Shown: positions 2,007 to 50,116 of the stretch, piece by piece
How positions within the stretch are numbered: the first letter of the stretch is position 1
Layout: every line of letters starts with the position of its first letter
Source: Solirubrobacteraceae bacterium
GTDB taxonomy: Bacteria > Actinomycetota > Thermoleophilia > Solirubrobacterales > Solirubrobacteraceae
Length of the DNA: 64,000 nt
Direction of reading: 5' to 3'
Assembly (NCBI GenBank): GCA_025449845.1
Contig: JANWIP010000003.1
Span: forward strand, 1-64,000
Made by a program: the position numbers and the translations under genes
Notes under the pieces: generated by a model
The model's database searches: none
Seen by the model: only the letters and a program-made list of their open reading frames with translations
What the model was told of the DNA's origin: nothing

Positions 2007-2588
2007 CTAGGCCGCGAGCAGGTCGACGACGAAGACCAAGGCCGAGTTAGGCGGGATGCTGGGAGGAGACCCCTGCACTCCGTAGCCGAGTTCGGAAGGA
2101 ATGATGAGCATGCGTCGCCCGCCGACCTTCATCCCGGCAACCCCCTGGTCCCAGCCCTTGATGACCTGCCCCTGCCCGAGCGCGAAGGTAAAAGGTTCCT
2201 TGCGCTTCCAGGAGGCATCGAATTCTTTGCCCCCCTTGTAGAGGACGCCGACGTAGTTGACGGTGACGGACTGCCCGGCCTTGGCTTCAGGCCCGCTGCC
2301 AACGATGAGTTCCTTGGTGATGAGCTTGGTAGGCGTGGGCCCCTTGGGCACGTTCACGACGGGCTCAGTGGCGAGCGGCCCGCTAGTAGGCGTAGTGGCG
2401 GCCGTGCTGGTAGCGGTGGCCTGCGTAAGAGTGGCCGGGGGCGGCGACTCGTTGCCGACGGTGATGGAGCTGGTGGACCCGGAGGAGCCGCAACCGGAGA
2501 CGGCAAAAGCGGCGCTGGCGCCGAGCGCCCCGACGGCAAGCAGAGCGCGAGAGCGCGAAGTGTGGGAGAAGAGGTTTGTGAAGTTCAT
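2007..2588 (-). CDS. FKBP-type peptidyl-prolyl cis-trans isomerase, lipoprotein
   Basis: 193 residues. An N-terminal signal with lipobox-like 'AVSGCGSSG' (Cys33) is followed by a Thr/Ala/Pro linker to about residue 85. The C-terminal 105 residues form one complete FKBP domain: GQSVTVNYVGVLYKGGKEFD, then 'FALGQGQVIKGWDQGVAGM', 'GGRRMLIIPSELGYG' and a closing 'NSALVFVVDLLA'. The aromatic and Asp residues of the active cleft are present, so the enzyme should be active and probably helps fold exported proteins. The start is ATG 2588; no strong ribosome binding site is visible. The upstream region on this strand is extremely G-rich. Confidence 0.92.
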   Translation of the reverse strand: MNFTNLFSHTSRSRALLAVGALGASAAFAVSGCGSSGSTSSITVGNESPPPATLTQATATSTAATTPTSGPLATEPVVNVPKGPTPTKLITKELIVGSGPEAKAGQSVTVNYVGVLYKGGKEFDASWKRKEPFTFALGQGQVIKGWDQGVAGMKVGGRRMLIIPSELGYGVQGSPPSIPPNSALVFVVDLLAA

Positions 2589-2649
2589 TGTGGCGGGCAG
2601 CCTAACCGAAGACGCGAGCTATGTGGGTGGTTGTCTCCGTTGCCTGGCA

Positions 2650-2745
2650 CGGTCAAGCCTCGCCCCCCAACTTCCACCCCTCACCCTCGCCCCCTACACC
2701 CCACCCTCACCCCACCCTCGCCCCCCAAACTCCACCTCCAACCTG
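2650..2745. repeat. C-rich low-complexity tract (G-rich on the minus strand)
   Basis: Runs of three to six C separated by one to four other bases, with repeated CCCCACCCTC-like units. On the minus strand this becomes closely spaced G-runs upstream of the FKBP gene, which could form G-quadruplexes. No convincing coding frame covers it. Confidence 0.6.
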
Positions 2746-2793
2746 CATCCCCGACGACTCACTCCAACCCGGCCCCACAACCCCTATGATCCC

Positions 2794-3075
2794 GAGTGGA
2801 CCGTGCTAGGCGGGGAGGTAGCGGTGCCCTGCACCCGCAATCCGCTCTAGCGGGGCTGAATTCCCCTCCAAGGGGTTCCGCCCCGGTCGCTCCGCGGCTT
2901 GGGGCGTCGATGGTTCGGGTCCCGCGCGGTGTCGGTCTGCGAACCAGGTCAGGTCCGGAAGGAAGCAGCCTTAAGCATCATCGGCAGGCGCAGCGGGAGT
3001 ACCCGGGCCGGAGCCGCAGGCCACGATCAGGCGATCGGAAGCGAGAATTTCAACGAGGGGTGCACGGTCCGCTTA
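2794..3075 (+). ncRNA. ffs: Signal recognition particle RNA, large bacterial type with Alu domain
   Basis: The SRP54-binding apical hairpin is unmistakable: GGTCAGGTCCGGAAGGAAGC at 2947-2966 followed by AGCC. Upstream, GTGCTAGGCGGGGAGGTAGC at 2803-2822 and the CCCTGCACCCGCAATCCGCT block that follows match the Alu-domain part of large-type SRP RNAs. The 5' segment AGTGGACCGTGC (2795-2806) pairs with GCACGGTCCGCT (3062-3073), closing a long rod of about 280 nt; the ends were set from this pairing. In many bacteria the SRP RNA sits just upstream of dnaX. Here a minus-strand membrane-protein gene separates the two. Confidence 0.92.
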
Positions 3076-3106
3076 TAGGCGGCGCCTGCTCATATGCAGT
3101 GCCCGC

Positions 3107-4603
3107 TCATCGGCAGCGCTGAAAGACCAACCAGGAGCGATTCCCGCCGGCGAGCGCAAAGCCGGCGGGCACGGCGGCGGTCAAAGGATGCGGGTCGAGC
3201 CGATCAAGGGTGTAGTCCTTTTCGACCTGCTTCGAAGCAGGGTCGACATAGATGCCACGCACGAGCGGCCGCACCTGAGCACTGAGCACGCGCGCGGGAC
3301 TGGCATCAAGGCGCAAGGCAAGCAGCGGGATAGGCCGGTGATTAGGCACACCGACAAGGCCGGCACAGCGCAAGGAGATGGTGTGCCGATCGACAAGCGC
3401 GACGAGATCGTCCTGGATGCTCTGTTGGCGGCGCAAACTGGCGAGTTCGCGATTGACGCTGCGGTACTGCGCAGGCGCGGAAACCAAGAGCAGCAAAACC
3501 AAGACCGCGCTGCCAGCCGACCACCAGCGGCGGCGGGGATCGCCGCGCGGCAGCTGCTGCCAGCCAAACACGGCGCCGCCGGCGAAGACGCAGAGCAGGG
3601 CAGCCCCAAGAAAGGCGTAGCGCGTGTTGATGGGCAAGCCAACGGAGGCGAAGGCGGCAAAGACAACAACGGCAAGCACGCCGGCAAGCGCCCCGAGCAG
3701 GACGCGCGGGCGCAGCCAGAGCAGCCCGAGGACGCCGCCAAAGGCAGCGGGAAGCAGCACGAAAGGCCCAAGGATCTCGCCGAGGCGCCGCGGGATGTAT
3801 TGAGGAACATTGGCGATCCCCGTCTTGCGCCCGAGCTCGGAGGCGGTGTGGCGCGTGTTGGTGAGCGACCAGAAGAGGTGGCCGGTAACGAGCAGGTCGC
3901 TGAGCATCCAGAGCAAGGGCGCGCTGGCAACGAGCGCGGCAAGCCCAAGCAGTCGCCGCGGCGAGACGCGCTGGCCCCAGGCGAGGTAGAGCCAAAAGAG
4001 CCCAGAGAAAACCCAGGCCTCGGGCCGCAGGAGGCCGGCAAAAGCAAGCAGCGTGAGGACGATCATGGGAGACCCACCCCCCCCACCCCTCGCCCCAGCG
4101 CCTTCCTCGCCCGACCCAACCTCCTCGCCTAGCCCACCCCGCGAGGACCCAACAAGCAGAGCGCAGAGCACGAGCAGGAGATAAGGCAGATCGACATAGG
4201 CGCGCACGCCGTCGGACAAAAGCGGCACGCGCGTGAGCAGCAGCAAAGCGGCAAGCACCCCCGCGGCACGCCCGAACCACAAGGCCCCGAGCCGGTAGAC
4301 AACCAAGCCACAGCCGGCCAAGGCAACAAAGCCAAGCGCAACGGTGACCCCCTCCATCCCCGCACCACCAAGCGGAGAGAGCACAAACCCAAGCCCCTCC
4401 ACCAAAGGATGCGGCGTAGGAGCAATGGGAATGCCGTACTGCGGCGTGTGCCCGCCGGCCAGCTGCTGCCCCCAAACAAGCGCGTAGAGCGTGTCGTAAT
4501 TAGCGAAGCCAACCCCCGTAACCAACCACAGCAAGAACCCCCCGAAGGCCACTGCAAAGGCCACGGCAAGCACCGAGAGCGGGCGCGGTAGACGCAAGGA
4601 CAC
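3107..4603 (-). CDS. Multi-spanning GT-C-fold glycosyltransferase-like membrane protein
   Basis: About 498 residues if started at GTG 4603. It begins with a hydrophobic segment (LSVLAVAFAVAFGGFLLWLV) followed by an extracellular-loop block 'YDTLYALVWGQQLAGGHTP', typical of GT39/ArnT-like lipid-linked sugar transferases, and then about ten further membrane segments with arginine-rich short loops. The C-terminal 120 residues are soluble and probably periplasmic. The specific substrate cannot be read. The frame stays open to 4888, but that would overlap dnaX on the other strand, and the extra residues are Pro/Ser/Cys-rich without homology character. It sits between the SRP RNA and dnaX, opposite to both. 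Confidence 0.72.
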   Translation of the reverse strand: MSLRLPRPLSVLAVAFAVAFGGFLLWLVTGVGFANYDTLYALVWGQQLAGGHTPQYGIPIAPTPHPLVEGLGFVLSPLGGAGMEGVTVALGFVALAGCGLVVYRLGALWFGRAAGVLAALLLLTRVPLLSDGVRAYVDLPYLLLVLCALLVGSSRGGLGEEVGSGEEGAGARGGGGGSPMIVLTLLAFAGLLRPEAWVFSGLFWLYLAWGQRVSPRRLLGLAALVASAPLLWMLSDLLVTGHLFWSLTNTRHTASELGRKTGIANVPQYIPRRLGEILGPFVLLPAAFGGVLGLLWLRPRVLLGALAGVLAVVVFAAFASVGLPINTRYAFLGAALLCVFAGGAVFGWQQLPRGDPRRRWWSAGSAVLVLLLLVSAPAQYRSVNRELASLRRQQSIQDDLVALVDRHTISLRCAGLVGVPNHRPIPLLALRLDASPARVLSAQVRPLVRGIYVDPASKQVEKDYTLDRLDPHPLTAAVPAGFALAGGNRSWLVFQRCR

Positions 4604-4644
4604 GAGGCGGACGCTATCCAGTGAGGCGGGGGCAATGAGCGCGG

Positions 4645-6501
4645 GTGGCGCGGGTAGACTCAGAGAGAGTGTCCGAGGAGCCAGAGCAGCAGAGATCGCT
4701 GTACCGCCGGCACCGCCCGAGGACGTTCGCGGACGTGGTAGGCCAAGAGGCGGTGGTGCGAACGTTGCGCAATGCGGTGGCGCAGAACAAGGTCCACCAC
4801 GCATACCTGTTCGTAGGCAGCCGCGGCACGGGCAAGACGTCGATGGCAAAGATCCTGGCGGCGTGCCTGAACTGCGAGCGAGGCCCAACGATCGAGCCGT
4901 GCGGCGAATGCGAATCGTGCAAGCGGATCATGGCGGCGACGTCGCTGGACGTGATCGAGATGGACGCGGCCTCAAATAACTCAGTGGAGGACATCCGCGA
5001 ACTACGCGAGAGCGTGGCATACGCGCCGGTGAGCGGCCGCAAGAAGGTGTACATCCTGGATGAGGCACACATGCTGAGCAGCGCAGCATGGAATGCGTTC
5101 CTGAAGACCCTGGAGGAGCCACCCCCCAACACCGTCTTCGTATTGGCCACAACGGAGGCAAACAAGGTCCCGGCAACGGTGGTGGACCGCTGCCATCGCT
5201 TCGACTTCCAGCGCCCGAGCATCGAGCAGCTGGCAGGCGTGGTACTGCGAGTGTCAGCCAAGGAGTCGATCGAGATCCCACCGGAGGCCGCGGCGGCGGT
5301 GGCGCGCTCGGCGACGGGCAGCTTCCGCGACGCGCTAGGCACGCTGGAGCAGCTGCTGACATACAGCGGCAGCAGCATCGCGCACGAGGACGTACTGGCG
5401 GTGCTCGGCGTGGCCGACGGCCAGCTTCTGGAAGAGACGATCGACGCGGTGAGTGCAGGCGACGCGGCAGCGGTGCTGCGAGCGGTGGCGACGTGCGCGG
5501 AACAGGGCAGGGACGCAAGCGCGTTGACAAACGACCTGGAGACGCGCACGCGCGAGCTGCTGATCGCGCACACGCTGGGCGAGATCCCGACGGAGCTGAA
5601 GCTGACCCCCGATCTGGACGAGCGCCTGCTGACCCAGGCGCAGCGCACCCCGGCGGCGACGCTGGTGCGCCTGCTGGAGTTGCTAGGCGCGGCGATGGAG
5701 GCAACGCGCGCAGGCGCAGACCCGCGCACGCAGCTGGAGCTAGCGCTGGTGAAGGCGGCAAGACCAGAGACAGACGCCTCCAGGCAGGCGCTGCTGGCAA
5801 GGCTTGAGCGTCTGGAGGCAAGTGCTGGGAAAGATTTTAAGGAGGGGTTGGGCCGCGTGAAGGGTGCCATGACGCCCTCAGCAGACCCACCGCCGCCACC
5901 ACCAACGGGGGCGCGAGAGCCAGCCACTGCAAGCGCGCCGCCCGAGGAGCCCAACGCCCCTATGCAAGATTCAACTGCCAAGTCGGCTGCGCCGGCAGCG
6001 GTTGCTCCAGCGGCTCCACCCACTGCCGAGCCGCCAGCAACGATCTCACCCCCCGCACCCGCACCCGATCCAGCAGCGGCCAGCTCGGTGGACTCACTGA
6101 AGGCCCTATGGCCCTCGGTGGTAGAAGCGATCATGAAGCCCAATGCGCTGCTGGCGCACGTGATCGCGGAGGCGCGCCCGGTGGGCCTGGAGGGCGATGA
6201 GCTGACGGTGGCCTTTGACTCCTCGGCCCCGTTTATGAAGAAGAAAGCCGAGGACCCGGACAACCGGATGGTGGTCTCGGCGGCGCTGCGCGAGCTGACA
6301 GGCCGGCGGCTGCGCCTGTCCTATGAGCTGCGCGAGCTGGAGTCAGCTCCGGGCGGAGGCCTGAGCGAGGAGGAGTGGGTGGCACGCTTCATCGAGGAGC
6401 TGGACGCGGAGGAGCTGGAGGGCCACCCGGCGGTCGCGGCAACCGACGCCGCCACCGCGGCCGCCACCCCGGCAAGCACGACACCGAGCGAGAAAGGCTG
6501 A
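4645..6501 (+). CDS. dnaX: DNA polymerase III subunits gamma/tau
   Basis: Clamp-loader ATPase of the replicative polymerase. Starting from GTG 4645 (GTG 4669 is an alternative) there is the conserved 'SLYRRHRPRTFADVVGQE' opening, Walker A 'GSRGTGKTS', the zinc module CLNCERGPTIEPCGECESC, Walker B 'ILDEAHMLS' and the sensor region 'ATTEANKVPATVVDRCHRF' with the SRC-type arginine. Domain III and a Pro/Ala-rich linker (about residues 410-480) precede a C-terminal tau-like domain. No A-rich slippery heptamer is evident, so only the full-length product is predicted. It is followed 8 bases later by the YbaB gene and then recR, a widespread replication/repair cluster. Confidence 0.97.
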   Translation: MARVDSERVSEEPEQQRSLYRRHRPRTFADVVGQEAVVRTLRNAVAQNKVHHAYLFVGSRGTGKTSMAKILAACLNCERGPTIEPCGECESCKRIMAATSLDVIEMDAASNNSVEDIRELRESVAYAPVSGRKKVYILDEAHMLSSAAWNAFLKTLEEPPPNTVFVLATTEANKVPATVVDRCHRFDFQRPSIEQLAGVVLRVSAKESIEIPPEAAAAVARSATGSFRDALGTLEQLLTYSGSSIAHEDVLAVLGVADGQLLEETIDAVSAGDAAAVLRAVATCAEQGRDASALTNDLETRTRELLIAHTLGEIPTELKLTPDLDERLLTQAQRTPAATLVRLLELLGAAMEATRAGADPRTQLELALVKAARPETDASRQALLARLERLEASAGKDFKEGLGRVKGAMTPSADPPPPPPTGAREPATASAPPEEPNAPMQDSTAKSAAPAAVAPAAPPTAEPPATISPPAPAPDPAAASSVDSLKALWPSVVEAIMKPNALLAHVIAEARPVGLEGDELTVAFDSSAPFMKKKAEDPDNRMVVSAALRELTGRRLRLSYELRELESAPGGGLSEEEWVARFIEELDAEELEGHPAVAATDAATAAATPASTTPSEKG

Positions 6502-6509
6502 GCAAGAGG

Positions 6510-6848
6510 ATGCCACCACCAAGAAAGCCGAACATGCAGCAGATGATGGCGCAGGTCCAGAAGATGCAGCGAGATATGGCGACAGTGCAGGAGGAGCTGA
6601 AGCAGGAAACGGTAGACGCCAGCGCAGGCGGCGGGATGGTGACGGTGACGGTCAGCGGCGACCTGGTGATACAGGCGGTGAAGATCGACCCCTCGGCGGT
6701 GGACCCGGACGACGTGGAGATGCTGAGCGACATCATCCTGGCGGCGGCCAATGAGGCACTGCGCGCAGCACAGGAGCTGGCAGGCAAGCGCATGGAGGGC
6801 ATCACGGGCGGCATGGACCTAGGCGGCATGGGCCTGCCGGGCCTATAG
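6510..6848 (+). CDS. YbaB/EbfC family nucleoid-associated protein
   Basis: 112 residues from ATG 6510. The protein opens with PPPRKPNMQQMMAQVQKMQR, a methionine/glutamine-rich helix typical of the family, followed by 'ASAGGGMVTVTVSGDLVIQA' and a second helix 'LSDIILAAANEALRAAQEL', ending in a Gly/Met tail. Family members are small dimeric DNA-binding proteins, usually encoded between dnaX and recR as here. The frame is open further upstream inside dnaX, but family length and an AAAGG 12 bases ahead favour ATG 6510. Confidence 0.93.
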   Translation: MPPPRKPNMQQMMAQVQKMQRDMATVQEELKQETVDASAGGGMVTVTVSGDLVIQAVKIDPSAVDPDDVEMLSDIILAAANEALRAAQELAGKRMEGITGGMDLGGMGLPGL

Positions 6849-6887
6849 GGAAACATTGCGCACGCTCCCCGCCGCGACGGCACCATC

Positions 6888-7502
6888 ATGACCTCGACCT
6901 CCTTCGCCCCCCCGGTGCAGCGCCTGGTGACAGAGCTGTCAAAGCTCCCAGGCATCGGCCAGCGCACAGCACAGCGCCTGGCCTTCCACGTGCTGCGCGC
7001 CTCAGACGAGGACGCACTAGGCCTGGCGGAGGCGATCAAAGAGGTGAAAGAAAAGATCGGCCTGTGCGAGGTGTGCTTCAACTTGACCGATGAAGCACGC
7101 TGCCGCATCTGCCAGGACAGCCGCCGCGACCAGAGCGTGATCTGCGTGGTGGAGGAGCCAGGCGATGTGATCCCGATGGAGCGCACACACGAGTACCACG
7201 GCTCCTACCACGTGCTAGGCGGAGCGCTGAGCCCAATCGACGGCATCGACCCAGAGGACCTGAAGGTCGCGGAGCTGTTCAAGCGCATCGAGCCCCCAGC
7301 AGAGGTGCGCGAGGTGGTGCTGGCAACAAACCCGACGACGACAGGCGAGGCGACGGCACTGCATATAGCCCAGGTCCTACGCGAGCGCCACCCTGAGCTG
7401 AAGGTGACGCGCCTGGCAAGCGGCCTGCCAGTGGGATCGGACCTGGAGTACGCGGACGAGGTGACGCTGGGCAAGGCGTTGGCGGGTCGGCGGGCGTTGT
7501 AG
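6888..7502 (+). CDS. recR: Recombination mediator protein RecR
   Basis: 204 residues, normal family length. Domains in order: helix-hairpin-helix 'LSKLPGIGQRTAQRLAFHVL', a four-cysteine zinc motif CEVCFNLTDEARCRIC (about residues 63-78), a Toprim domain with 'VICVVEEPGDVIPMERTHEY', and the C-terminal 'RLASGLPVGSDLEYADEVTL' block. RecR acts with RecF/RecO in loading RecA on gapped DNA. It is third in the dnaX-ybaB-recR set, 39 bases after the YbaB gene. Confidence 0.97.
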   Translation: MTSTSFAPPVQRLVTELSKLPGIGQRTAQRLAFHVLRASDEDALGLAEAIKEVKEKIGLCEVCFNLTDEARCRICQDSRRDQSVICVVEEPGDVIPMERTHEYHGSYHVLGGALSPIDGIDPEDLKVAELFKRIEPPAEVREVVLATNPTTTGEATALHIAQVLRERHPELKVTRLASGLPVGSDLEYADEVTLGKALAGRRAL

Positions 7503-7557
7503 CGCTGACTGCACGTCGCGCGAGAGTTGCATCCCAGGCGTTGCGTAGGCTCGGCGC

Positions 7558-7791
7558 GTGGCTCGATTCCCCTCCTTGAAGGCGAAGAGGCTGCTGCGCA
7601 TCCTGACCTCGGAGCCGCTGAGTTACCGGGTCACCCGTCAGTCGGGGTCGCATCGCCGCCTGCAAGCCGATGGATACCCTGCCCTGACGTGGGCGTTCCA
7701 CGATGGACGGACCCTGGCGCCGAGTGAGGTGCGTCGTATCCTGGTCAATCATGTGGGCCTTGCGGAAGACGAGGCTCTGCGGCTACTCTGA
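7558..7791 (+). CDS. hicA: HicA-like toxin (type II toxin-antitoxin mRNA interferase)
   Basis: 77 residues from GTG 7558. The sequence has the short HicA dsRBD-like fold: an N-terminal 'KAKRLLRIL' helix, 'SGSHRRLQADG' with the catalytic histidine in the family's G-S-H-R-R context, a central strand region and a C-terminal 'LAPSEVRRILVNHVGL'. HicA toxins cleave mRNA during translation and are neutralised by HicB. The stop overlaps the next start as TGATG, implying translational coupling. The TA assignment comes from motif and pairing. Confidence 0.8.
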   Translation: MARFPSLKAKRLLRILTSEPLSYRVTRQSGSHRRLQADGYPALTWAFHDGRTLAPSEVRRILVNHVGLAEDEALRLL

Positions 7792-8030
7792 TGAGAGGGA
7801 TCATGGACACCATTCGCATCCTGCATCACCAGGCCCCAGGCTACGGCTGGAGCTTCGAGTCTCCGGACATCCCGGGCCTGACAGGGGGCACTGAGACCTA
7901 CGACGCGGCAAAGGCCGAGGAGGCAGCCAGGTTCGCCTTGGTCTGCGCTGCCGACGAGCAGGGTCTCCCGGCACCCGCCGATCTGACTTTTGAGCACTAC
8001 GTCCCAGCGGGCGTGGCCGTCGCCGCGTAA
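7791..8030 (+). CDS. hicB: HicB-like antitoxin
   Basis: 79 residues from ATG 7791; ATG 7803, behind GAGAGG, is a possible shorter start. It contains 'GYGWSFESPDIPGLTGGTET' followed by a helix of small and acidic residues 'DAAKAEEAARFALVCAAD', the degenerate RNase H-like fold of HicB antitoxins. No C-terminal DNA-binding domain is visible, so autoregulation may need another factor. It directly follows the HicA-like gene and ends 34 bases before aspartate kinase. Confidence 0.75.
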   Translation: MRGIMDTIRILHHQAPGYGWSFESPDIPGLTGGTETYDAAKAEEAARFALVCAADEQGLPAPADLTFEHYVPAGVAVAA

Positions 8031-8064
8031 CGAGGTAAATCTCCCAAGCAATATCCTGCCGGCC

Positions 8065-9333
8065 GTGAGCGAACTGGTGGTGATGAAGTTCGGCGGTACG
8101 TCGGTGTCTGACGCCGAGCGGATCAAGCGCGCGGCGCGGCGGATCGTAGCGAAGCGCGAGGCGGGCCACGGCGTGGTGGCGGTGCTGAGCGCGCGCGGCA
8201 AGACGACGGATGAGCTGATCGCGATGGCGGAGGAGGTCTCGGCCACGCCGGACCCGCGCGAGATGGACATGCTGCTCTCGACAGGCGAGCGGATCTCATG
8301 CGCGCTGTGCGCGATGGCGATCAACGATCTCGGGCACCGGGCGATATCGCTGACGGGTTCGCAGGCGGGGATCGTGACGGACGAGTCTCATACGAAGGCG
8401 CGCATCATCGATGTGCGGGCGGAGCGGATCGAGGCGGCGCTGCAGGAGGATCACATCGTGCTGGTGGCGGGCTTTCAGGGAATGTCGGAGGCCCGCGATG
8501 TGACGACGCTGGGCCGCGGCGGCTCGGACACCACGGCGGTGGCGGTGGCAGCGGCGCTCAAAGCCCGCGAATGCGAGATCTATACGGACGTGGATGGCGT
8601 GTTCAGCGCCGACCCGCGCCTGGTCGCAGACGCACGCCTACTCCCGCAGGTGTCCTTCGAGGAGATGCTTGAGATGGCGGCCTCAGGCGCGGGCGTGTTG
8701 CAGCTGCGCTCGGTGGAGTACGCGCGCAATCACGGCGTGAGGATTCACTGTCGCTCCTCATTCACGGACAAGCCCGGTACGGTTGTGGTCGGCGAGGCCG
8801 ACACGATGGAGCAGCCACTGATAACAGCCGTGACGCATTCGACCAGCGAGGCACGCCTTACGCTGGCGGGAGTACCGGATGAGCCAGGCGCGGCGGCGCG
8901 CATCTTCGCGGCGCTGGCGGAGGCGAATGTGAACGTGGACATGATCGTGCAGAACGAACCGACGAGCGCGGGCGGCCTGGCGGAGATCTCCTTCACGGTG
9001 CCGCGCGAAGACTTCTCCGTGGCGAGCAAGGCGCTGGAGGGTCTACGCGGCGAGGCCTATACGGAGCTGGTGGCGCACGCGGAGATGGGCAAGGTGTCGA
9101 TCGTGGGCGCGGGGATGCGCAGCCATCCGGGGGTGGCGGCGAAGGTCTTCGCGACGCTGGCGGCGGAGGAGATCAACATCGACATGATCTCGACGTCGCC
9201 GATCAAGATCTCCTGCGTGATCCCACGCGAGGGCGTGGAGCGGGCGGTGAGCGCGTTGCATGCGGCCTTCGAACTCTCGGGCCCGGGTACAGTGGGCGTG
9301 GAGCAGCCGTTCAGCCCACGCGGCGCTGCATAA
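8065..9333 (+). CDS. lysC: Aspartate kinase (monofunctional, two ACT domains)
   Basis: 422 residues from GTG 8065. This makes the first step of the lysine/threonine/methionine branch, phosphorylating aspartate. The N-terminal kinase motif 'VMKFGGTSVSDAERIKRAAR' is present, as is the 'TLGRGGSDTTAVAVAAALKA' substrate/ATP region. Two ACT regulatory domains follow from about residue 265 ('LTLAGVPDEPGAAARIFAAL' and 'VGAGMRSHPGVAAKVFATLA'), suggesting feedback control by lysine and/or threonine. The longer frame from 7990 would overlap hicB, and only the GTG at 8065 gives the family's usual N-terminus. Confidence 0.95.
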   Translation: MSELVVMKFGGTSVSDAERIKRAARRIVAKREAGHGVVAVLSARGKTTDELIAMAEEVSATPDPREMDMLLSTGERISCALCAMAINDLGHRAISLTGSQAGIVTDESHTKARIIDVRAERIEAALQEDHIVLVAGFQGMSEARDVTTLGRGGSDTTAVAVAAALKARECEIYTDVDGVFSADPRLVADARLLPQVSFEEMLEMAASGAGVLQLRSVEYARNHGVRIHCRSSFTDKPGTVVVGEADTMEQPLITAVTHSTSEARLTLAGVPDEPGAAARIFAALAEANVNVDMIVQNEPTSAGGLAEISFTVPREDFSVASKALEGLRGEAYTELVAHAEMGKVSIVGAGMRSHPGVAAKVFATLAAEEINIDMISTSPIKISCVIPREGVERAVSALHAAFELSGPGTVGVEQPFSPRGAA

Positions 9334-41706: not shown

Positions 41707-43911
41707 ATGAGGCGGAAGCCCTTTGCGAACCTTGTCTTTGTTGTGCTCTTATCCTTGCTCATCGGCAGCATGCTCGGTGCGGGATCTGCCGACGGATCTT
41801 CCGGGTGTCCGAATCGAGCATTGACTGGCTTTCAGGCGTTTCTGCCCGACTGCAGAGCTTATGAGATGGTCACTCCGCCCTATAAGGAGGGTTTCCCGTT
41901 CCTTACAGATGAAGTATCTGAGGATGGGTCGCAGGTGCTCGTCGAATCCTTTGGGAATCTACTGACCCCCGAAGATAAGACTCCTGATGGCACGGGTCCG
42001 CTCCTGCATGCCTACCGACTGGTGCGTACTGACGTTGGCTGGAAGTCGATGCCGGTGGATGCGCCATTCTCCACGTTCGCTGACATCGAAGTGGAGAGCC
42101 TGAGCCCCGACTTTGGCACCAGTACATGGTCCGCAAGCGCACAAGGCGAATCGTCAGCTGATATCTATCTCGATCTTCCCAGTGGTCTAGTACGTGTAGG
42201 GCCCGCCGGTCCGCCTGGAGCTTTGGAAAGCTCGCTTCGGTTCGCTGGAGGGTCCGAAGATCTGCGTCATGCACTGTTCTTTGTTCATTCTCCGAAGGTG
42301 GGTCTGGAAGAAGAACATCTCTGGCCGGGAGACACCACGCATCCGGACCGTCGGCCTTCGCTCTATGAATATGCTGGCACTGGCCTCTCCGAACCGAGCT
42401 TGGTGGGCGTCAAGAATCAGACATCGGTGTCGGAAACCGCAAAGCTCGAGAGTAAGACTTACATCAATCAGGCGGCGGAACTGATAAGCAATTGCGGTAC
42501 GGTCCTGGGCAGCTATCCGGAAGGCGATACCTACAACGCGATCGGGGCGGATGGGAAAACGGTCTTCTTCACGTCAGAGGAATGCGGCGGTACACCACCG
42601 GTGAATGAACTCTATGCCCGGATCGGCGGGGAAAAGACGGTGGCGATCTCCGAGCCGCCTATGTCTATTCAGGGCCGGGATTGCACGACGGAAGAATGCA
42701 TGATGGCTGAGAATGTGTCCAGCAACCGGAAAGCCGCTGTCTTCGCGGGCGCGTCGCTGGATGGGTCGAGAGTTTTCTTCTCCACGAACCAGCCACTGGT
42801 GAACGCTGATACGGACAACGGGCCCGATCTCTACGAGGAGGACATCAGTGGACATACGGTGACAAGACTGGTCCAGGTCTCGCGCGGCGGGGTCGGCGAT
42901 CCGACCCCAGGAGTGGGTGCAAACGTGCTGGGTGTGGCCCGCGTCTCCGAGGACGGCTCGCACGTCTACTTTGTTGCGCGTGGCGTCCTAGCGGGCGCGA
43001 ACGGTAGAGGGAAGTTTCCCATGGTGGGCGAACCGAATCTGTATGTGTCAGTGCGCGAATGCGCCGGTGGGGGCAGTGTCTGCGGGAACCCTGTGGAACA
43101 TACCTCCTTCATCGGCACGCTGTCAGGCGCCGACGCAGCGGACTGGAACCCCATTAACAGACGGCCTGCGCAGGCGACGCCCGATGGACGTTTTCTGGTG
43201 TTCCAGAGCGCCGCCGACCTGACACCCGATGAGGAAGGCGAACCGGAGGCCGGGCAGGTGTTCGAGTACGACGCTGACACCGGGATACTCACGCGGGTGT
43301 CGCGGGGACAGAATGGCTACAACTCGGACGGGAATTCCAGTGTGTACCCGGCCACGATCCCCGTTCAGGTCTACGAAGTCGACTTACCGGATACGCGCTT
43401 CACGCACTTGGCGGTGTCTGCTGACGGCTCTCGTGTCTTCTTCACGAGTTCGAACTCTCTTACACCGCAGGCTTTGGCAGGCGTCGCCAGCGTGTACGAG
43501 TATCACGATGAACAGGTCAGCCTGATCTCAGATGGCCACGATGTCGTCGTGCTCTCTGAAGGCAGCGCCACCCGATTGATCGGGACCGACGAGTCGGGAC
43601 GCAATGTCTTCTTCACGAGCGCGGATCGGCTAGTGCCTCAGGATCGCGATACCTGGCTGGATCTCTACGACGCTCGCATGGAAGGTGGATTCACGCCGCC
43701 GGCGATATCGGCGCCATGTTTTGGGGATCCCTGTCAGGGTTCTGGCAGTGCTGCGCCATTGTTGGTCGGCCCCGGTGTGCCCGCCGGCGCCGGGGAAGCT
43801 CCCGTCGGAGCTGGCACGCACCCGAAGGCAAAGGTCGTGAAGAAGAAAGCCAGGAAGCGGAAGCACACGGGGAGAGCGCATAAGCGGGCACGAGGAAGGG
43901 GCAAGCGATGA
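41707..43911 (+). CDS. Secreted beta-propeller protein with polybasic C-terminus
   Basis: 734 residues from ATG 41707, with GGGAGAGGA upstream. The signal/anchor (LVFVVLLSLLIGSMLGAG) is followed by 'CPNRALTGFQAFLPDCRAYE', a start seen in a large thermoleophilial family. Propeller-type repeats follow: 'SEDGSQVLVESF', 'GADGKTVFFTSE', 'SLDGSRVFFSTN', 'SEDGSHVYFVAR', 'TPDGRFLVFQSA', 'SADGSRVFFTSS' and 'DESGRNVFFTSA', seven in all, each a TolB/PD40-like blade. The C-terminal 30 residues are almost all Lys/Arg/His. The stop overlaps the next start (ATGA), so the two are coupled. Function unknown; probably surface binding. Confidence 0.85.
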   Translation: MRRKPFANLVFVVLLSLLIGSMLGAGSADGSSGCPNRALTGFQAFLPDCRAYEMVTPPYKEGFPFLTDEVSEDGSQVLVESFGNLLTPEDKTPDGTGPLLHAYRLVRTDVGWKSMPVDAPFSTFADIEVESLSPDFGTSTWSASAQGESSADIYLDLPSGLVRVGPAGPPGALESSLRFAGGSEDLRHALFFVHSPKVGLEEEHLWPGDTTHPDRRPSLYEYAGTGLSEPSLVGVKNQTSVSETAKLESKTYINQAAELISNCGTVLGSYPEGDTYNAIGADGKTVFFTSEECGGTPPVNELYARIGGEKTVAISEPPMSIQGRDCTTEECMMAENVSSNRKAAVFAGASLDGSRVFFSTNQPLVNADTDNGPDLYEEDISGHTVTRLVQVSRGGVGDPTPGVGANVLGVARVSEDGSHVYFVARGVLAGANGRGKFPMVGEPNLYVSVRECAGGGSVCGNPVEHTSFIGTLSGADAADWNPINRRPAQATPDGRFLVFQSAADLTPDEEGEPEAGQVFEYDADTGILTRVSRGQNGYNSDGNSSVYPATIPVQVYEVDLPDTRFTHLAVSADGSRVFFTSSNSLTPQALAGVASVYEYHDEQVSLISDGHDVVVLSEGSATRLIGTDESGRNVFFTSADRLVPQDRDTWLDLYDARMEGGFTPPAISAPCFGDPCQGSGSAAPLLVGPGVPAGAGEAPVGAGTHPKAKVVKKKARKRKHTGRAHKRARGRGKR

Positions 43912-46900
43912 TCACGAATTTGAAATATTACTTGCATTCCATCTCATTGACAGCGGCCTGTGGCTTATGCATCATGACTCTGGCCTGCGTGGCGTCCCCC
44001 CGCGTCGCGCAGGCCGCCCCCTCCGCGGGATGGCTGATCTCCTCGGTCGCGCAGCCGACGAACTTCGCGACCACGGACAACACACTGTGCACCAGCGCAT
44101 TGCTCTCGTTTTGCGACCGATATATCGTGACCGTCACCAACGTCGGAAGCGCCGCGGCGGGCGAACCGGAACACGGGCCGGTAGTCATCGCCGACACATT
44201 GCCACCGGGCCTCAGGGCGGTCGGGATGAGTGGCGCCAATCTGGAGGATGGTATACGTCTGGAAAATAATGGTATGGGCTGGACGTGCACCGTGTCCAAC
44301 ACCACCTGCACCTATACCGGACAGGTGGACCCAGGCAGCACGCTGGTTGTCTACGTGGAAGTGGAAGTGGCCTCCGCGGTGCACAGCATCACGAATTTCA
44401 CGCGGGTGTCGGGCGGTGGCGCTCCGCCGATTGCTACGAGTGAACCGCTGACGCTGCCGAACACCGTGGATGGGCCACCGGCCGCCTTCGGGATCTCGGC
44501 CTTTGGGGTCGAAGCGCACGATCTGGACGGGCTGCTGGACACCCTGGCAGGCGATCATCCGTATGGCCTCACCAGCACGGTGAACTTCAACACGGCCATC
44601 ACGGCAGAGCCGAATGGAGTGCTCGTACCTGGAAGCGTAGAGCCTCCCAAGGATCTGGCTGTCTACCTGCCGTTAGGTTTCATTGGCAATCCCACTGCGG
44701 CGGCACAGTGCACCGAGATACAGCTGAGCGAAGGTGGGAACCTCAGTTCCGATTGCCCTCTGGCAAGTCGCGTGGGCACGTTCGTACTCTTCGATGAAAA
44801 TATCGTCTCTGGCACCGTGGTACCCGCGGGAGGAGGTGCGGATTCACCCATTTACAATATGGTGCCCCAGGGGGGTTACCCTGCGCAGTTCGGCTTCAAG
44901 ATCACCGGCATCCCGATCCCGCTGTACGCAAGCGTCGTGCACACACCCTCCGGCTATGCTCTGCGTGTCACCACTCCTGGCATACCCACGTCGCTCCACA
45001 TCGAGGGCGCCGCCGTCACCTTCTTCGGTAACCCCAAGGAAGCCGACGGCGAACCCAATAACTCCCAGGCCTTCTTCACAAACCCCGACAATTGCAGCGC
45101 CGGACCCCTGACCGCCAAGGTCCAGGCCGACTCCTGGGAGTCCCCTGGCCAGTGGGTCACCGCCGAATCCGTTGCCTACCCCCGGCTCACTGGCTGCAAC
45201 CTCCTCCAGTTCGAACCCACAGTCGAGCTGCACCCCGAAGTAACCCAGTCCGAAGCCCCATCAGGCTACGAAATCAAGATCAAGGTCCCCCAGAGCCAGG
45301 AGCGCTTCCCGATCCTGGCCACCCCCCAGCTGAAGGACGTCACGATGACGCTCCCCGAAGGCATGGCGATCTCCCCCGGCGGAGGCGATGGCCTGACCGG
45401 TTGCGAAGCCACAGGCCCCCACGGCATCGACATGCCCAACGGCGACAGCACCCCATTCGACGTAGGCACCGGCGAAGAAATCGGCCAGGAAGGCATGACG
45501 CAGCTTTCCCCGGGCCACTGCCCCCAGTCCTCGCAGATCGGCACGGTGCAGATCGTGACTCCGGTCCTGAAGAATCCCCTAGAGGGCCACCTATACATCG
45601 CCCGGCCCAAGTGCGGCGGCCCGAACCAGTCGCCGTGCACAGCCGCGGATGCCACCAACGGAAACCTCTTCGGCCTATACCTGGAAGCTGGCAGCGAAGA
45701 ACTGGGCTCCGTGGTCAAGCTCGCCGGAAGCGTCTCGGTGAACCCAACGACAGGCCGCATAACCGCGAAGTTCCTGGAAAACCCGCAGCTGCCCTTCAGC
45801 GAAGTAGCCATACAGATCAAGGGCGGCCCCCGAGCCCCCCTGGCCAACCCGCGTCAGTGCGGCCCCACAAGCGCCAACGCCGACCTGTCTCCGTGGAGCG
45901 CCCCCATAACCCCCGACGCCACCGTGGCAAGCCCCCCATTCGAAACGACTTGGGATGGCAACACGGCTCCCTGCCCGGCCACGCTCCCGTTCGCACCCAC
46001 ACTCTCAGCAGGCCCCGTAAATGTCTCGGCGGGCCACTTCAGCCCCTTCGCGCTGACGGTCACCCGCGGCGACCGCCAGCAGGACATCTCACGCCTACAG
46101 GTCACGATGCCGGTCGGCCTGCTCGGCATGATCTCCAAGGTGCCGCTGTGCGAAGAAACAGCGGCCAACCAGGGCACATGCGAAGAAAAGAGCAACATCG
46201 GCACGGTGCACGTAGCGGCCGGCTCTGGCTCGCACCCCCTGTGGGTGACGGGCAAGGTCTACCTGACGGGCCCTTACAACGGCGCCCCATTCGGCCTTTC
46301 GATCGTGGTCCCGGCGGTGGCGGGCCCGTTCAACCTGGGCAACGTGATCGTGCGTTCGAGGATCGACATCGATCCAAACACGAGCGCGGTTACGATCACG
46401 AGCGATCCCCTGTCGCAGTTCCGCGATGGCGTGCCCCTGCGCATCCAGACCTTGAACGTGACCGTGGAACGCGAAGGCGGCTTCCTCTTCAACCCGACGC
46501 ACTGCACGGGGATGCAGGTCGCGGCAACGGTGCAGTCCGCGCAGGGTGCATCGAGCAGCCTGACCTCGCCGGTAGGGCTGGAAGGCTGCGCGGGCCTTCC
46601 GTTCAAGCCCAGTTTCAAGGTCTCCACCGGCGCGGCCACCTCCAAGGCGCTGGGCGCCAGCCTCGACGTGAAGGTCACCTCGGGCGCGGGCCAGGCCAAC
46701 ATCGCGGGCGTCGCGGTGAAGCTGCCCAAGCAGCTGCCGGCGCGACTGACGACCATCCAGCACGCCTGCCTAGCTGCGACCTTCGCGAGCAACCCCGCGA
46801 ACTGTGACCCGAGTTCGTTGGTTGGTGTCGTTACCGCCACCACGCCAGTCCTGCCCGTCAAGCTCATCGGCCCTGCTTACCTGGTCTCCCACGGCGGCGC

Positions 46901-47234
46901 TGCCTTCCCTGATTTGGTGGTCGTTCTCCAGGGCGACGGTGTACGGATCAATCTGACCGGCAACATCAACATCTCCAAGGGCATCACCAGCAGCACCTTC
47001 GCAAGCGTCCCCGACGCCCCGATCGAATCCTTCGAGCTCAAGCTCCCGCGCGGCCCCCACAGCGCTCTGACGAGCAACGTCAGGGCGCTCTGTGGCCAGA
47101 AGCTCGCGATGCCCACGACGATCACCGGCCAGAACGGTGCCCAGCTGAAGCAGACCACGAAGATCGCGGTCACCGGCTGCCCGAAGGCCAAGAAGCGTGC
47201 TCCTGCCAAGAAGCGAGCGGCAGCCAAGCGGTAG
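43908..47234 (+). CDS. Large secreted DUF11-type repeat protein with polybasic C-terminus
   Basis: 1108 residues; ATG 43908 lies in the 4-base overlap with the previous stop. N-terminal hydrophobic segment (LTAACGLCIMTLACVA), then a DUF11-like domain ('DRYIVTVTNVGSAAAGEPEH', 'IADTLPPGLRAVGMSG'). Several repeats follow with 'CPLASRVGTF', 'CPQSSQIGTVQIVTPVLKNP', 'LPFSEVAIQIKGGPRAPLAN' and later 'CEEKSNIGTVHV', each a strand set with a conserved Cys. The protein ends in 'KAKKRAPAKKRAAAKR'. Likely a long cell-surface protein. The 111 bases after the stop contain no other gene. Confidence 0.85.
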   Translation: MITNLKYYLHSISLTAACGLCIMTLACVASPRVAQAAPSAGWLISSVAQPTNFATTDNTLCTSALLSFCDRYIVTVTNVGSAAAGEPEHGPVVIADTLPPGLRAVGMSGANLEDGIRLENNGMGWTCTVSNTTCTYTGQVDPGSTLVVYVEVEVASAVHSITNFTRVSGGGAPPIATSEPLTLPNTVDGPPAAFGISAFGVEAHDLDGLLDTLAGDHPYGLTSTVNFNTAITAEPNGVLVPGSVEPPKDLAVYLPLGFIGNPTAAAQCTEIQLSEGGNLSSDCPLASRVGTFVLFDENIVSGTVVPAGGGADSPIYNMVPQGGYPAQFGFKITGIPIPLYASVVHTPSGYALRVTTPGIPTSLHIEGAAVTFFGNPKEADGEPNNSQAFFTNPDNCSAGPLTAKVQADSWESPGQWVTAESVAYPRLTGCNLLQFEPTVELHPEVTQSEAPSGYEIKIKVPQSQERFPILATPQLKDVTMTLPEGMAISPGGGDGLTGCEATGPHGIDMPNGDSTPFDVGTGEEIGQEGMTQLSPGHCPQSSQIGTVQIVTPVLKNPLEGHLYIARPKCGGPNQSPCTAADATNGNLFGLYLEAGSEELGSVVKLAGSVSVNPTTGRITAKFLENPQLPFSEVAIQIKGGPRAPLANPRQCGPTSANADLSPWSAPITPDATVASPPFETTWDGNTAPCPATLPFAPTLSAGPVNVSAGHFSPFALTVTRGDRQQDISRLQVTMPVGLLGMISKVPLCEETAANQGTCEEKSNIGTVHVAAGSGSHPLWVTGKVYLTGPYNGAPFGLSIVVPAVAGPFNLGNVIVRSRIDIDPNTSAVTITSDPLSQFRDGVPLRIQTLNVTVEREGGFLFNPTHCTGMQVAATVQSAQGASSSLTSPVGLEGCAGLPFKPSFKVSTGAATSKALGASLDVKVTSGAGQANIAGVAVKLPKQLPARLTTIQHACLAATFASNPANCDPSSLVGVVTATTPVLPVKLIGPAYLVSHGGAAFPDLVVVLQGDGVRINLTGNINISKGITSSTFASVPDAPIESFELKLPRGPHSALTSNVRALCGQKLAMPTTITGQNGAQLKQTTKIAVTGCPKAKKRAPAKKRAAAKR

Positions 47235-47579: not shown

Positions 47580-49163
47580 CTACCCATCCGCCGCCAGCAA
47601 CCCCACCCCCGCAAAGCGCTCCAGCACTGCCTCAAGTTCCTCCCGCGAAACCTTTTCCCTCGAAACCTCGCCCTCCGCAGCATCGCCCCCCGCCCCCAAC
47701 TCTCGCAGCACCCCGGCCCGATCCCGCTCGCCGTCCAGCAGCGCCAGCACCCGCTGCTCAAGCTCCCCTTCCAGACGCACGTTGGCATGCAGCAACGAGC
47801 TGACGGCAGGCAACCCCGCGGCCCCCTGCGCCCGCGCCAGCGGACTGGCCCGAGGCCGCTCCCCCGCACGGTTGACAAGCGGCGGCGCACACCCCTGCAG
47901 CATGACGATCTGCGCCAGATACGCTTCCAGCAGCACGACCCGCAGCCTGGCGCGCACCAACTCGTGCGGCACCTCATCCTCGGCGACCTCGCCCTCCGCA
48001 AGCTCATCGACCGCCGCGCCCTCCATCGCAGCGACCCCCCGCTCAAGCAGCTCCCCGAAACTGAGCGCCCGCGGCCAGGCCTCCTGAAGCGCCCCCATGG
48101 CGGCAAGCACCAAAGGCTCGGACGAGGTCATGGTGTATCCCTCGGGAGTCTCAAAAACACCATCCTGCTCGCCACCCCTGGCAGCCGAGTAAACAGCGAA
48201 CCCCTCAACCTGCGTGTCATCGAGCTCCCGACAAATGGGCGCATCGGCATGACACAAAAGCGTCTGCCTGAACATGCGGTTCTTGAAGAAATCAAGGTAC
48301 TGCTCGCGCACGACCACATCGTTCGGCAATCCAGCCATCAACCGCTCGGCGCTGTCCGGCACCTCCCGCATCTGACTCTCGAACAGATTGGCCTCGGACA
48401 AGAACGCAAGCCGATGCTGCTCGGCGTGCTCAACGAACTCATGAAAGTAGAACGGAGTGGATATCTCCGCCAGATCGTCGTGAAACAGAAGCGCATCGGT
48501 GTAGCGCAGCATGCGCCCCATGTGCTCGCGCAGCACCTGCGCATAGGGCGAAGGCTCCTCGATCGCCACGATCGTCTGCATCAGCTCCTGCGCCGCCCGC
48601 AGCTTGCGCTCGGGGTCGGAGATGTCGCGCACGTGATACCCGAGCACGTCCCGAGCCATGTCCCGCAGATAGCTGCCGGGATAGGCGTTGTAGCTGACAT
48701 AGGCGACCCCCATCGGCGCCAGATGGCGGCGCACCCCCGCCAACAGCGCGACCCGCACGCGCGGCGGGATCCACGAGTAAACCCCGTGACTGAGGACGTA
48801 GTCAAACCCGCCGCCAGCGACCCCCAACCCAGCCCCCTCAGCGACCCCTAGCTGATCCCCTTCAGGCAGCTCTTCGAGGTCCATGCACAACAGCTCGACG
48901 TTCCCCAAGCCGCCCTCCCGCGCAAGCCGGTTCCCCCGCTCAACGGCGGTCCCGGCAGCGTCGATGCCGACAAAGCGAGCCCCCGGCAGCGCCTGCGCAA
49001 GCGAGAGCAGGTTCCCCCCGTCACCGCACCCCAACTCCAGCACGCTGCTCTCAGCGGCAGCCGCGGGCCTCAGCCCGAACAATCTGGCGATCGCCTCCAG
49101 GCGCGCGGGATGCGTGGCCGGATAGGCGTACCCGGGGTACGCAAAGAGGTCGTAGCCGCTCAG
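47580..49163 (-). CDS. SAM-dependent methyltransferase with regulatory domain; probable non-standard start
   Basis: About 527 residues if read from CTG 49163. SAM motif I is 'VLELGCGDGGNLLSLAQALP', followed by 'FVGIDAAGTAVERG' and 'FDYVLSHGVYSWIPPRVRVA'. The 'STPFYFHEFVEHAEQHRLAF' block and C-terminal part match the methyltransferase regulatory domain of this family. The family's N-terminal block 'YDLFAYPGYAYPATHPARLE' followed by 'AIARLFGL' lies upstream of the first standard start (TTG 49082), in frame but with no ATG or GTG ahead of it. A CTG at 49163 overlaps the stop of the Hcp-like gene. Substrate unknown. Confidence 0.85.
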   Translation of the reverse strand: MSGYDLFAYPGYAYPATHPARLEAIARLFGLRPAAAAESSVLELGCGDGGNLLSLAQALPGARFVGIDAAGTAVERGNRLAREGGLGNVELLCMDLEELPEGDQLGVAEGAGLGVAGGGFDYVLSHGVYSWIPPRVRVALLAGVRRHLAPMGVAYVSYNAYPGSYLRDMARDVLGYHVRDISDPERKLRAAQELMQTIVAIEEPSPYAQVLREHMGRMLRYTDALLFHDDLAEISTPFYFHEFVEHAEQHRLAFLSEANLFESQMREVPDSAERLMAGLPNDVVVREQYLDFFKNRMFRQTLLCHADAPICRELDDTQVEGFAVYSAARGGEQDGVFETPEGYTMTSSEPLVLAAMGALQEAWPRALSFGELLERGVAAMEGAAVDELAEGEVAEDEVPHELVRARLRVVLLEAYLAQIVMLQGCAPPLVNRAGERPRASPLARAQGAAGLPAVSSLLHANVRLEGELEQRVLALLDGERDRAGVLRELGAGGDAAEGEVSREKVSREELEAVLERFAGVGLLAADG

Positions 49164-50116
49164 ATCTTGGCCTGCGCGTTGAGGTTGAAGCTGACGCTGC
49201 TGGGCCGACCGCCGCCAGTGATGACGGTCTCGGTGGCCTTGGCGAAGTTGAAGGTCACCTGCTCCAGAGGCGTGGCCTTGTTCGAAGCCTGCCCATCCTG
49301 AACGCTTGAGATGAGGACGTCGGTGAGATCGATCTTCAGGTAGTCCTGCTGACCTTTGCCGGCCTTGCGCGCGAACGACAGCTCTGCCTTGGCGATGTGC
49401 TTGCCGGTGGCTGAGGCCTCGAAGAGCAGCGGCGAGGCTTTATCGAGCGTCTTGGTGATGGTGAAGCTCTCGATCGTCTTGCCCGCGCCCCCGCCGCCCC
49501 CGCTCCCCTGCGCGCCGGTGTTGTGAGCGCCGAAGGAGAAGGAGTCGATCTCGATCTGGCCGCTGTGATGCTTGTCGGTGGACTCTCCCTTGATGCCGTC
49601 CAGCTTGAGGAAGGTCGTGCCGCCATTGTTGCTGAGGCCGAAGGTCGTATCGCCGATCAGCGGCGCACCGGGCGCGCCCTGCCCGCCGGCGGCGCCCTGC
49701 CCGCCCGCCGGTCCCTGGGGCCCAGTTGGCCCCTGTGGCCCGGCAGGTCCGCTCTGGTTCCAGGTGATCTGCTTCTCTTCCGGTTCGCACTGCGCCGCCG
49801 GGTTCGGAGTACCCTGCGCGCCGAGTGGATTGCTGAAGGTCTTGGGCAGGCTCGGATCGATCACGCGCAGCGAGCCGGGCGCCTCGGTGGCACCGTTGAT
49901 CGTAATGTTGTTCGGAGCGCCATTGGCATTCGTGATCGGGTTCGGGCTCGCGTAGCACCCCGTGATGGTGCCGTCCGCACCAGGAATCGACCCCACGGCA
50001 ATAGCCGCCCCGGCGCCCAAAGCAGCCGCCGTAGGCAGTGCAATCTTCAGCATCTGGCGCCCGCGCCAACGGCGCTGCACCTCGCGTGCGATCTCGTTTG
50101 CCTCGTGCTGGCTCAT
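49160..50116 (-). CDS. Exported Hcp-like domain protein with collagen-like stalk
   Basis: 318 residues. A short cytoplasmic start with 'EANEIAREVQRRWRGRQML' is followed by one hydrophobic segment ('IALPTAAALGAGAAIAVGS'). A linker and a collagen-like Gly-X-Y run ('GPAGPQGPTGPQGPAGGQ', then 'GAAGGQGAPGAP') come next. The C-terminal 160 residues match the Hcp tube-protein fold: 'FLKLDGIKGESTDKHHSGQI' 'EIDSFSFG', 'SFTITKTLDKASPLLFEASA' and 'DYLKIDLTDVLISSVQ'. Type VI secretion is not known in actinobacteria and no such genes lie nearby. This is probably an extracellular Hcp-like domain displayed on a stalk; its binding partner is unknown. Confidence 0.85.
   Translation of the reverse strand: MSQHEANEIAREVQRRWRGRQMLKIALPTAAALGAGAAIAVGSIPGADGTITGCYASPNPITNANGAPNNITINGATEAPGSLRVIDPSLPKTFSNPLGAQGTPNPAAQCEPEEKQITWNQSGPAGPQGPTGPQGPAGGQGAAGGQGAPGAPLIGDTTFGLSNNGGTTFLKLDGIKGESTDKHHSGQIEIDSFSFGAHNTGAQGSGGGGGAGKTIESFTITKTLDKASPLLFEASATGKHIAKAELSFARKAGKGQQDYLKIDLTDVLISSVQDGQASNKATPLEQVTFNFAKATETVITGGGRPSSVSFNLNAQAKI

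What the first reader, a model, noticed from the sequence alone, without database searches (positions are those of the whole stretch)
49160..50116. Exported Hcp-like domain carried on a collagen-like stalk
Seen: one N-terminal membrane segment, a Gly-X-Y run and then a C-terminal domain that reads like the Hcp tube protein of type VI secretion. Known: Hcp forms hexameric rings and T6SS is not known from actinobacteria; collagen-like runs tend to trimerise. Inferred: a surface-displayed oligomeric ring on a stalk, used for adhesion or binding and not for injection. No T6SS genes are visible in the window.
Basis: partly seen in the sequence, partly recalled or inferred. Interest (0 to 1): 0.62.

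Follow-up and report, generated by a model that had tools for sequence, protein, structure and literature searches.

The report
Stalked Hcp protein with methyltransferase partner
A soil-type actinobacterium with no detectable type VI secretion system carries the tube-building Hcp domain on a short collagen-like stalk outside the cell, encoded in tight translational linkage with an enzyme resembling those that methylate bacterial surface adhesins, which suggests that an injection-machine part was turned into a modified surface protein.

Summary
The ORF at 49160-50116 is on the minus strand (318 aa). It has one N-terminal membrane segment, a two-cysteine module, ten Gly-X-Y triplets and a C-terminal Hcp domain (PF05638, E=4.8e-38; 47% identical to a tube protein inside a true T6SS cluster). 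The genome has one Hcp and no detectable TssC, TssK, VgrG or phage-type sheath. The architecture recurs in at least 15 other Thermoleophilia genomes. Two of these carry two tandem Hcp domains after the collagen run; three chains would then supply six Hcp domains.

PKMT relatives methylate surface adhesins (OmpB; the trimeric adhesin AtaA). It follows the stalked Hcp directly in five genomes with at least four different flanks, always in the -1 register with an NTGA stop/start overlap. Four of the five use CTG; three have no canonical start at all.

Most likely this is an exported, oligomeric, Hcp-headed surface protein, lysine-methylated before export and used for binding. Hexamerisation, methylation and adhesion are inferred. 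Structure prediction failed because the permitted alignment was too shallow. New variant of known kinds.

The parts
49160..50116 (-). stalked Hcp gene, 318 aa plus stop
   Evidence: ATG-to-TGA ORF; GC3 pattern; orthologues in the same and other genera
49982..50050 (-). hydrophobic export/anchor segment, residues 23-45 (LKIALPTAAALGAGAAIAVGSIP), preceded by basic residues; signal anchor or cleaved signal peptide, not decided
   Evidence: sequence; relatives end the segment in AAA or AYA-like motifs
49751..49978 (-). two-cysteine module, residues 47-122 (GCY...LRVIDP...C..EE..ITWNQSGP)
   Evidence: C54, C110 and N120 invariant in 7 stalked proteins; same module without Hcp in a Nocardioidaceae collagen-like protein (L046)
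49661..49750 (-). collagen-like stalk, residues 123-152, ten Gly-X-Y triplets
   Evidence: 0 of 100,000 shuffles reach 10
49163..49660 (-). C-terminal head, residues 153-318; Hcp domain proper at 169-295 (49232-49612)
   Evidence: PF05638 4.8e-38, TIGR03344 2.9e-18, 1y12 2.4e-25
49160..49163 (-). CTGA stop/start overlap: TGA of the Hcp gene overlaps the proposed CTG start of the methyltransferase
   Evidence: -1 register and NTGA in 5 of 5 stalked Hcp-PKMT pairs; no ATG/GTG/TTG is available in that frame in three of them
47580..49163 (-). PKMT-type protein-lysine methyltransferase, 527 aa if read from the CTG (500 aa from the first canonical start, TTG at 49082)
   Evidence: PF13649, PF10119 5.7e-20, PF21782 PKMT_2nd 1.3e-11; Rickettsia PKMT1 9.2e-52 and PKMT2 2.9e-50; adjacency in 5 genomes

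Best explanation
This is a domesticated Hcp: an exported surface protein, not a secretion-tube part. A hydrophobic N-terminal segment takes the chain through the cytoplasmic membrane; a disulphide-capable module and a ten-triplet collagen-like rod lift the C-terminal Hcp domain off the cell. Collagen runs trimerise, so the Hcp heads are presented in multiples of three and most likely assemble into rings (two stalk trimers per hexamer here; one trimer per pseudo-hexamer in relatives with two tandem Hcp domains). The ring serves as a multivalent binding head. The next gene, started at the Hcp stop codon (CTGA), makes a PKMT-type methyltransferase that methylates lysines of the newly made Hcp protein in the cytoplasm before export, as PKMT and KmtA do for the adhesins OmpB and AtaA. 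Shown: domain anatomy, absence of tested T6SS parts, recurrence, conserved linkage and NTGA overlap. Inferred: trimer/ring, methylation of this substrate, binding role.
For: Hcp domain and stalk. One Hcp in the genome, no TssC, contractile sheath, VgrG or TssK. Same architecture in at least 15 other Thermoleophilia genomes, including same-genus orthologues. Two proteins of genus g17 have collagen followed by two Hcp domains. PKMT downstream in window, G186, G722, G726 and G665, and after an unstalked Hcp in G041. Flanks differ: sdh/CCG side in window and G186, prfA in G722, GGDEF-HD in G726, cyclase/AAA in G665, so the pair moves or persists as a unit. PKMT in 4 of 4 Hcp+ and 1 of 22 Hcp- genomes of the genus (Fisher 3e-4 before correcting for kinship); the exception G712 has a short Hcp C-terminus-like relic (VSVLISGNAKI*) just before its PKMT. 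PKMT is rare in the class (8 of 299). PKMTs act on surface adhesins (PMC11784438).
Against: No experiment. No usable structure. Ten triplets is short for a stable triple helix without a separate trimerising part. Not all stalked Hcps have the PKMT (G280, G680, G740 and others do not). PKMT homologues also occur without any Hcp (G011, G178, second copy in G665) and beside a contractile-injection locus (g15), so their substrates vary. Lysine richness of the head is a general Hcp trait and does not support methylation specifically. Nothing directly shows adhesion.
Confidence: 0.55

Rival explanations
1. Surface Hcp display as in the best explanation, but the methyltransferase has another substrate; the two genes are merely co-transcribed.
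For: Stalked Hcps exist without PKMT; PKMT relatives exist without Hcp; lysine content is not specific.
Against: Adjacency kept in five genomes with at least four flanks, always with the -1 NTGA overlap; a third setting with an unstalked Hcp (G041) and a probable one with a divergent exported Hcp-like protein (G700: Pfam E=0.0018, below cut-off; profile comparison probability 90); relic Hcp end in G712.
Confidence: 0.25
2. The Hcp is still part of an injection device: an unrecognised T6SS or contractile system of this lineage uses it as tube or tip.
For: The head is a typical Hcp, 47% identical to a T6SS tube protein beside tssB/tssC. Some Solirubrobacteraceae have contractile-injection loci, and a PKMT paralogue sits beside them.
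Against: TssC, TssK, VgrG and phage-type sheath are not detected in G000 (the E. coli control rings in each). A tube protein tethered outside by a membrane segment and collagen cannot stack in a cytoplasmic sheath. In the g15 genomes the injection tube is a gp19-type protein, not the stalked Hcp. G000 is 92.6% complete, so a missed locus is possible but unlikely.
Confidence: 0.05
3. The Hcp head is a monomeric or trimeric carbohydrate/protein-binding domain; the ring geometry was lost.
For: Heads of several stalked relatives are very divergent and have long branches (L017, L018, L058); collagen alone would dictate trimers.
Against: The window head keeps the full-length Hcp pattern including the glycine-rich loop GGGGGAGK; tandem-Hcp relatives fit six domains per trimer.
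Confidence: 0.12
4. Programmed -1 frameshifting at the Hcp end makes an Hcp-methyltransferase fusion instead of a re-initiated second protein.
For: -1 register in 5 of 5 and no canonical start codon in three genomes.
Against: No slippery heptamer is visible at the junction (AAG ATC TGA); a fusion would export a SAM-dependent enzyme, where there is no SAM; NTGA overlaps are a standard re-initiation signal (general knowledge).
Confidence: 0.03

Closest known systems
Hcp / TssD, T6SS tube protein (PF05638, TIGR03344; e.g. PA0085, PDB 1y12)
   Same: The head is a member of the family by sequence over its whole length.
   Different: Exported with a membrane segment and collagen-like stalk; no sheath, baseplate or spike genes detected; coupled to a methyltransferase.
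Bacterial collagen-like proteins (Scl1/Scl2 of Streptococcus pyogenes, Lcl of Legionella, Bucl of Burkholderia)
   Same: Exported chain with an uninterrupted Gly-X-Y run joined to a globular domain; those studied are surface binding proteins (PMC11162425 for Lcl, abstract only).
   Different: Very short run (10 triplets), below the Pfam Collagen cut-off; Hcp head; no LPXTG anchor seen.
Outer-membrane protein lysine methyltransferases: Rickettsia PKMT1/PKMT2 and Acinetobacter KmtA (PMC11784438)
   Same: Neighbour matches PKMT1 at 9e-52 over 295 residues, has the PF10119 and PKMT_2nd domains, and aligns an Asp (VGID) and a His (LSHGV) at the places of the AdoMet-binding Asp102 and His146; substrates of the known enzymes are surface adhesins, one of them a trimer.
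   Different: Actinobacterial, start codon overlapping the stop of a stalked Hcp; substrate not tested.
VgrG spike trimers
   Same: Two Hcp-like domains per chain times three chains, the arithmetic also offered by the tandem-Hcp collagen proteins of genus g17 (from general knowledge).
   Different: No sequence relation to VgrG was sought for the stalk proteins; collagen, not a beta-helix, would do the trimerising.

Membership tests
Hcp (PF05638) domain family | profile match above the curated cut-off over the full domain | tested here: met
   130.8 bits vs 23.5, positions 1-126 of 129
Hcp (PF05638) domain family | hexameric ring that stacks into tubes | not testable with these tools
   monomer predictor only; models unusable
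Type VI secretion system | contractile sheath TssC (VipB) | tested here: not met
   PF05943 absent in G000 and in 23 of the 24 other Hcp+ genomes
Type VI secretion system | baseplate TssK and spike VgrG | tested here: not met
   PF05936 absent, PF05954 absent
Type VI secretion system | membrane complex TssJLM | not tested
Extracellular contractile injection system | phage-type sheath | tested here: not met
   PF04984 absent in G000
Bacterial collagen-like protein | export signal plus uninterrupted Gly-X-Y run | tested here: met
   10 triplets, 0 of 100,000 shuffles; hydrophobic segment 23-45
Bacterial collagen-like protein | Pfam Collagen score above cut-off | tested here: not met
   17.9 of 27.2 bits; met by relatives with longer runs
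Bacterial collagen-like protein | triple-helical trimer | not testable with these tools
   needs circular dichroism or structure
PKMT-type protein lysine methyltransferase (neighbour gene) | PKMT domain set and AdoMet residues | tested here: met
   PF13649 + PF10119 + PF21782; PKMT1 alignment with conserved Asp and His (residues named in PMC11784438)
PKMT-type protein lysine methyltransferase (neighbour gene) | methylates a surface protein | not testable with these tools
   needs mass spectrometry

The most novel reading that the evidence does not exclude
Hcp was freed from type VI secretion in Solirubrobacteraceae and their kin and became the head of a lysine-methylated, collagen-stalked surface ring. 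Dedicated PKMT enzymes, translated from a CTG codon overlapping the Hcp stop, modify it, and PKMT relatives may be general modifiers of Hcp-fold/tube-fold proteins (they also sit beside contractile-injection tube genes in one genus).
Probability: 0.35. Interest if true: 0.8.

Novelty: new variant of a known kind. Interest (0 to 1): 0.62.

Why it matters
Hcp is known as the tube of a contractile weapon. A clade of presumably single-membrane actinobacteria that shows it outside the cell on a collagen-like rod, in fixed linkage with a surface-protein methyltransferase, would be a case of a phage-tail fold domesticated for display. It extends PKMT-type adhesin methylation, so far reported for Gram-negative bacteria in the paper read here, to actinobacteria, with an obvious candidate substrate. 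It also warns that annotating Hcp as 'type VI secretion' in genome surveys is wrong for such proteins, and it gives a start codon (CTG) that gene callers miss.

Tried and rejected
(2) Three viral-contig scans for more relatives found none. (3) Lysine enrichment as a sign of PKMT substrate: the head has 9% Lys and 1% Arg, but ordinary T6SS and unstalked Hcps are the same, so it was dropped. (4) Single origin of all stalked heads: the tree needs 8 changes and the AU test gives p=0.046 against one clade, but long branches make this weak; one versus several fusions stays open, though the four same-genus heads form one clade (99/100). (5) Other copies of the stalk in the own genome: no convincing hit (L035 and L037 are unrelated large exported proteins). 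(6) Hcp on plasmids and phages: only proteobacterial-type T6SS Hcps and a few unannotated phage records match, never the stalk. (7) PADLOC: only a generic methyltransferase match (mad2). (8) Literature: no paper in the held library combines Hcp with a collagen-like protein as one molecule, or Hcp with Thermoleophilia, judged from titles, abstracts and term counts.

Full report
1. Observation. The ORF named in the finding is real but lies on the minus strand: 50116 down to 49160, 318 aa. From N to C it has a basic start, one hydrophobic segment (23-45), a module with two invariant cysteines (C54, C110), ten uninterrupted Gly-X-Y triplets (123-152), and an Hcp domain (169-295). The Gly run is far beyond chance: 100,000 shuffles of the protein reached at most 8. 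The Hcp assignment is not in doubt: PF05638 4.8e-38, TIGR03344 above its cut-off, 1y12 (PA0085) 2.4e-25, and 47% identity over residues 169-295 to the Hcp in a Sphingomonas tssB-tssC-hcp-tssE-tssF-tssG cluster.

2. No secretion machine. The assembly (G000, 3.27 Mb, 36 contigs, 92.6% complete) holds a single Hcp. TssC, phage-type sheath, VgrG and TssK are absent; each search found its target in the E. coli control. Of 25 Hcp-bearing genomes in the class only G102 (76% complete, 5% contaminated) has TssC, beside its Hcp. TssB, TssE/F/G and TssJLM were not searched.

3. Distribution. Hcp occurs in 25 of 299 sampled genomes of the class, 8 of 396 of the phylum sample and 18 of 146 of the family. 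Reading the proteins shows three kinds: unstalked (L003-L011, L039, L040, L049 and others), exported without stalk (L016, L020, L052, L054, L060, L061 and others), and stalked (L001, L002, L012, L014, L017, L018, L021, L047, L048, L050, L051, L055, L056, L058, L064, with L022 cut at its start). Two proteins of genus g17 (L076, L077; 5' ends cut by contig ends) have a collagen run followed by two Hcp domains. Three such chains carry six Hcp domains, the number in an Hcp ring; this is arithmetic, not a structure. A genome scan with names places two relatives in Solirubrobacteraceae MAGs (L044, whose contig length equals that of G186:C27, and L045), and finds the stalk module with a long collagen run and no Hcp in a Nocardioidaceae MAG (L046). 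The window genome is of the same genus as G186.

4. The partner gene. The gene immediately downstream (47580-49082 in the ORF list) is a methyltransferase with the PKMT domain set, closest among solved structures to Rickettsia PKMT1 and PKMT2 (9.2e-52, 2.9e-50). The AdoMet-contacting Asp102 and His146 of PKMT1 (named in PMC11784438) align with Asp in VGID and His in LSHGV; I matched the numbering by counting along the alignment. It follows the stalked Hcp in the window, G186, G722, G726 and G665, and an unstalked Hcp in G041, a different family. The flanks differ: sdh/CCG genes upstream in window and G186, prfA downstream in G722, a GGDEF-HD gene upstream in G726, a cyclase/AAA gene nearby in G665. 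In G700 the PKMT follows a membrane-anchored protein with a weak Hcp resemblance (Pfam 0.0018, below cut-off; profile comparison probability 90, E 1.7e-6). PKMT is present in 4 of 4 Hcp+ and 1 of 22 Hcp- genomes of the genus (Fisher p=3e-4, not corrected for kinship); the exception, G712, reads ...VSVLISGNAKI* just before its PKMT, resembling the Hcp end ...VSFNLNAQAKI*, so it probably lost the Hcp. PKMT is rare in the class (8 of 299).

5. The junction. The conserved PKMT N-terminus (SGYDLFAYPGYAYPATHPARLEAIARLFGL) begins at the Hcp stop codon in the -1 register. The overlap is CTGA in window, G186, G722 and G726, and TTGA in G665. In window, G722 and G726 no ATG, GTG or TTG exists in that frame between the preceding stop codon and the conserved motif. 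So either CTG is the start, by termination-reinitiation, or the frame is reached by slippage; no slippery heptamer is visible. In G041 and G700 the PKMT has a canonical start within about 10 nt after the Hcp stop. Tight linkage is thus a property of all seven pairs, the NTGA overlap of the five stalked ones. The same genus supplies four of these five, so they are not independent.

6. Mechanism. OM PKMTs are known to methylate surface adhesins: OmpB of Rickettsia, and the trimeric autotransporter adhesin AtaA by KmtA in Acinetobacter Tol 5, where loss of KmtA changed surface amount and adhesion (PMC11784438). A PKMT translationally linked with an exported, probably trimeric protein fits the same logic: methylation in the cytoplasm before export. 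I therefore favour a methylated, multivalent surface binding protein. Steps shown: anatomy, recurrence, missing T6SS parts, linkage, start/stop overlap. Steps inferred: trimerisation, ring, methylation of this substrate, binding.

7. Limits. Structure prediction failed for lack of permitted relatives. Tree support among stalked heads is poor, so the number of fusion events is unknown. Anchor versus cleaved signal peptide is undecided. PKMT substrates vary: homologues in g15 genomes lie beside a Pvc16-sheath-gp19 tube locus, which hints at, but does not show, a taste for tube-fold proteins. The literature search covers only the held open-access library.

Noticed in passing
L118, L119, L120, L121, L122 (genus g15): PKMT homologues (31-36% overall) lie divergently beside an extracellular contractile injection locus with Pvc16_N, phage-type sheath and gp19-type tube protein; Pfam was run on L118 only, the others by matching sequence.
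   Followed up: partly
L076:2567-3655, L077:4475-5590 (minus): Collagen-like run followed by two tandem Hcp domains in one chain; both 5' ends are cut by contig ends.
   Followed up: partly
L113 (G712:C231) about 5940-6030: Short Hcp C-terminus-like relic before a PKMT that is also partly duplicated (truncated copy at 4061-4498): probable recent loss of the Hcp.
   Followed up: partly
L124 (G102:C156): TssC (VipB, 4.6e-139) next to Hcp on an 8.4 kb contig of a 76% complete Thermoleophilia MAG: contamination or a real actinobacterial T6SS.
   Followed up: no
L069:8541-9755 and L078:4221-5473: Two PKMT-less stalked Hcps (G280, G680) are followed, with one or two ORFs between, by a PrmA-like protein methyltransferase; may be housekeeping synteny.
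   Followed up: partly
L071 (G726:C160) 2928-4339: The PKMT is split by a frame change in this genome (assembly error or pseudogene); its Hcp head is also on a long branch.
   Followed up: no
L086 (G041) 1-9030: Beside the unstalked Hcp-PKMT pair lie a second divergent Hcp and a 2598-aa protein with a lipase-like stretch (GHSTAG-like).
   Followed up: no
window 43908-47234 (+): 1108-aa exported DUF11-like protein with at least two large relatives elsewhere in the genome (L035, L037).
   Followed up: no
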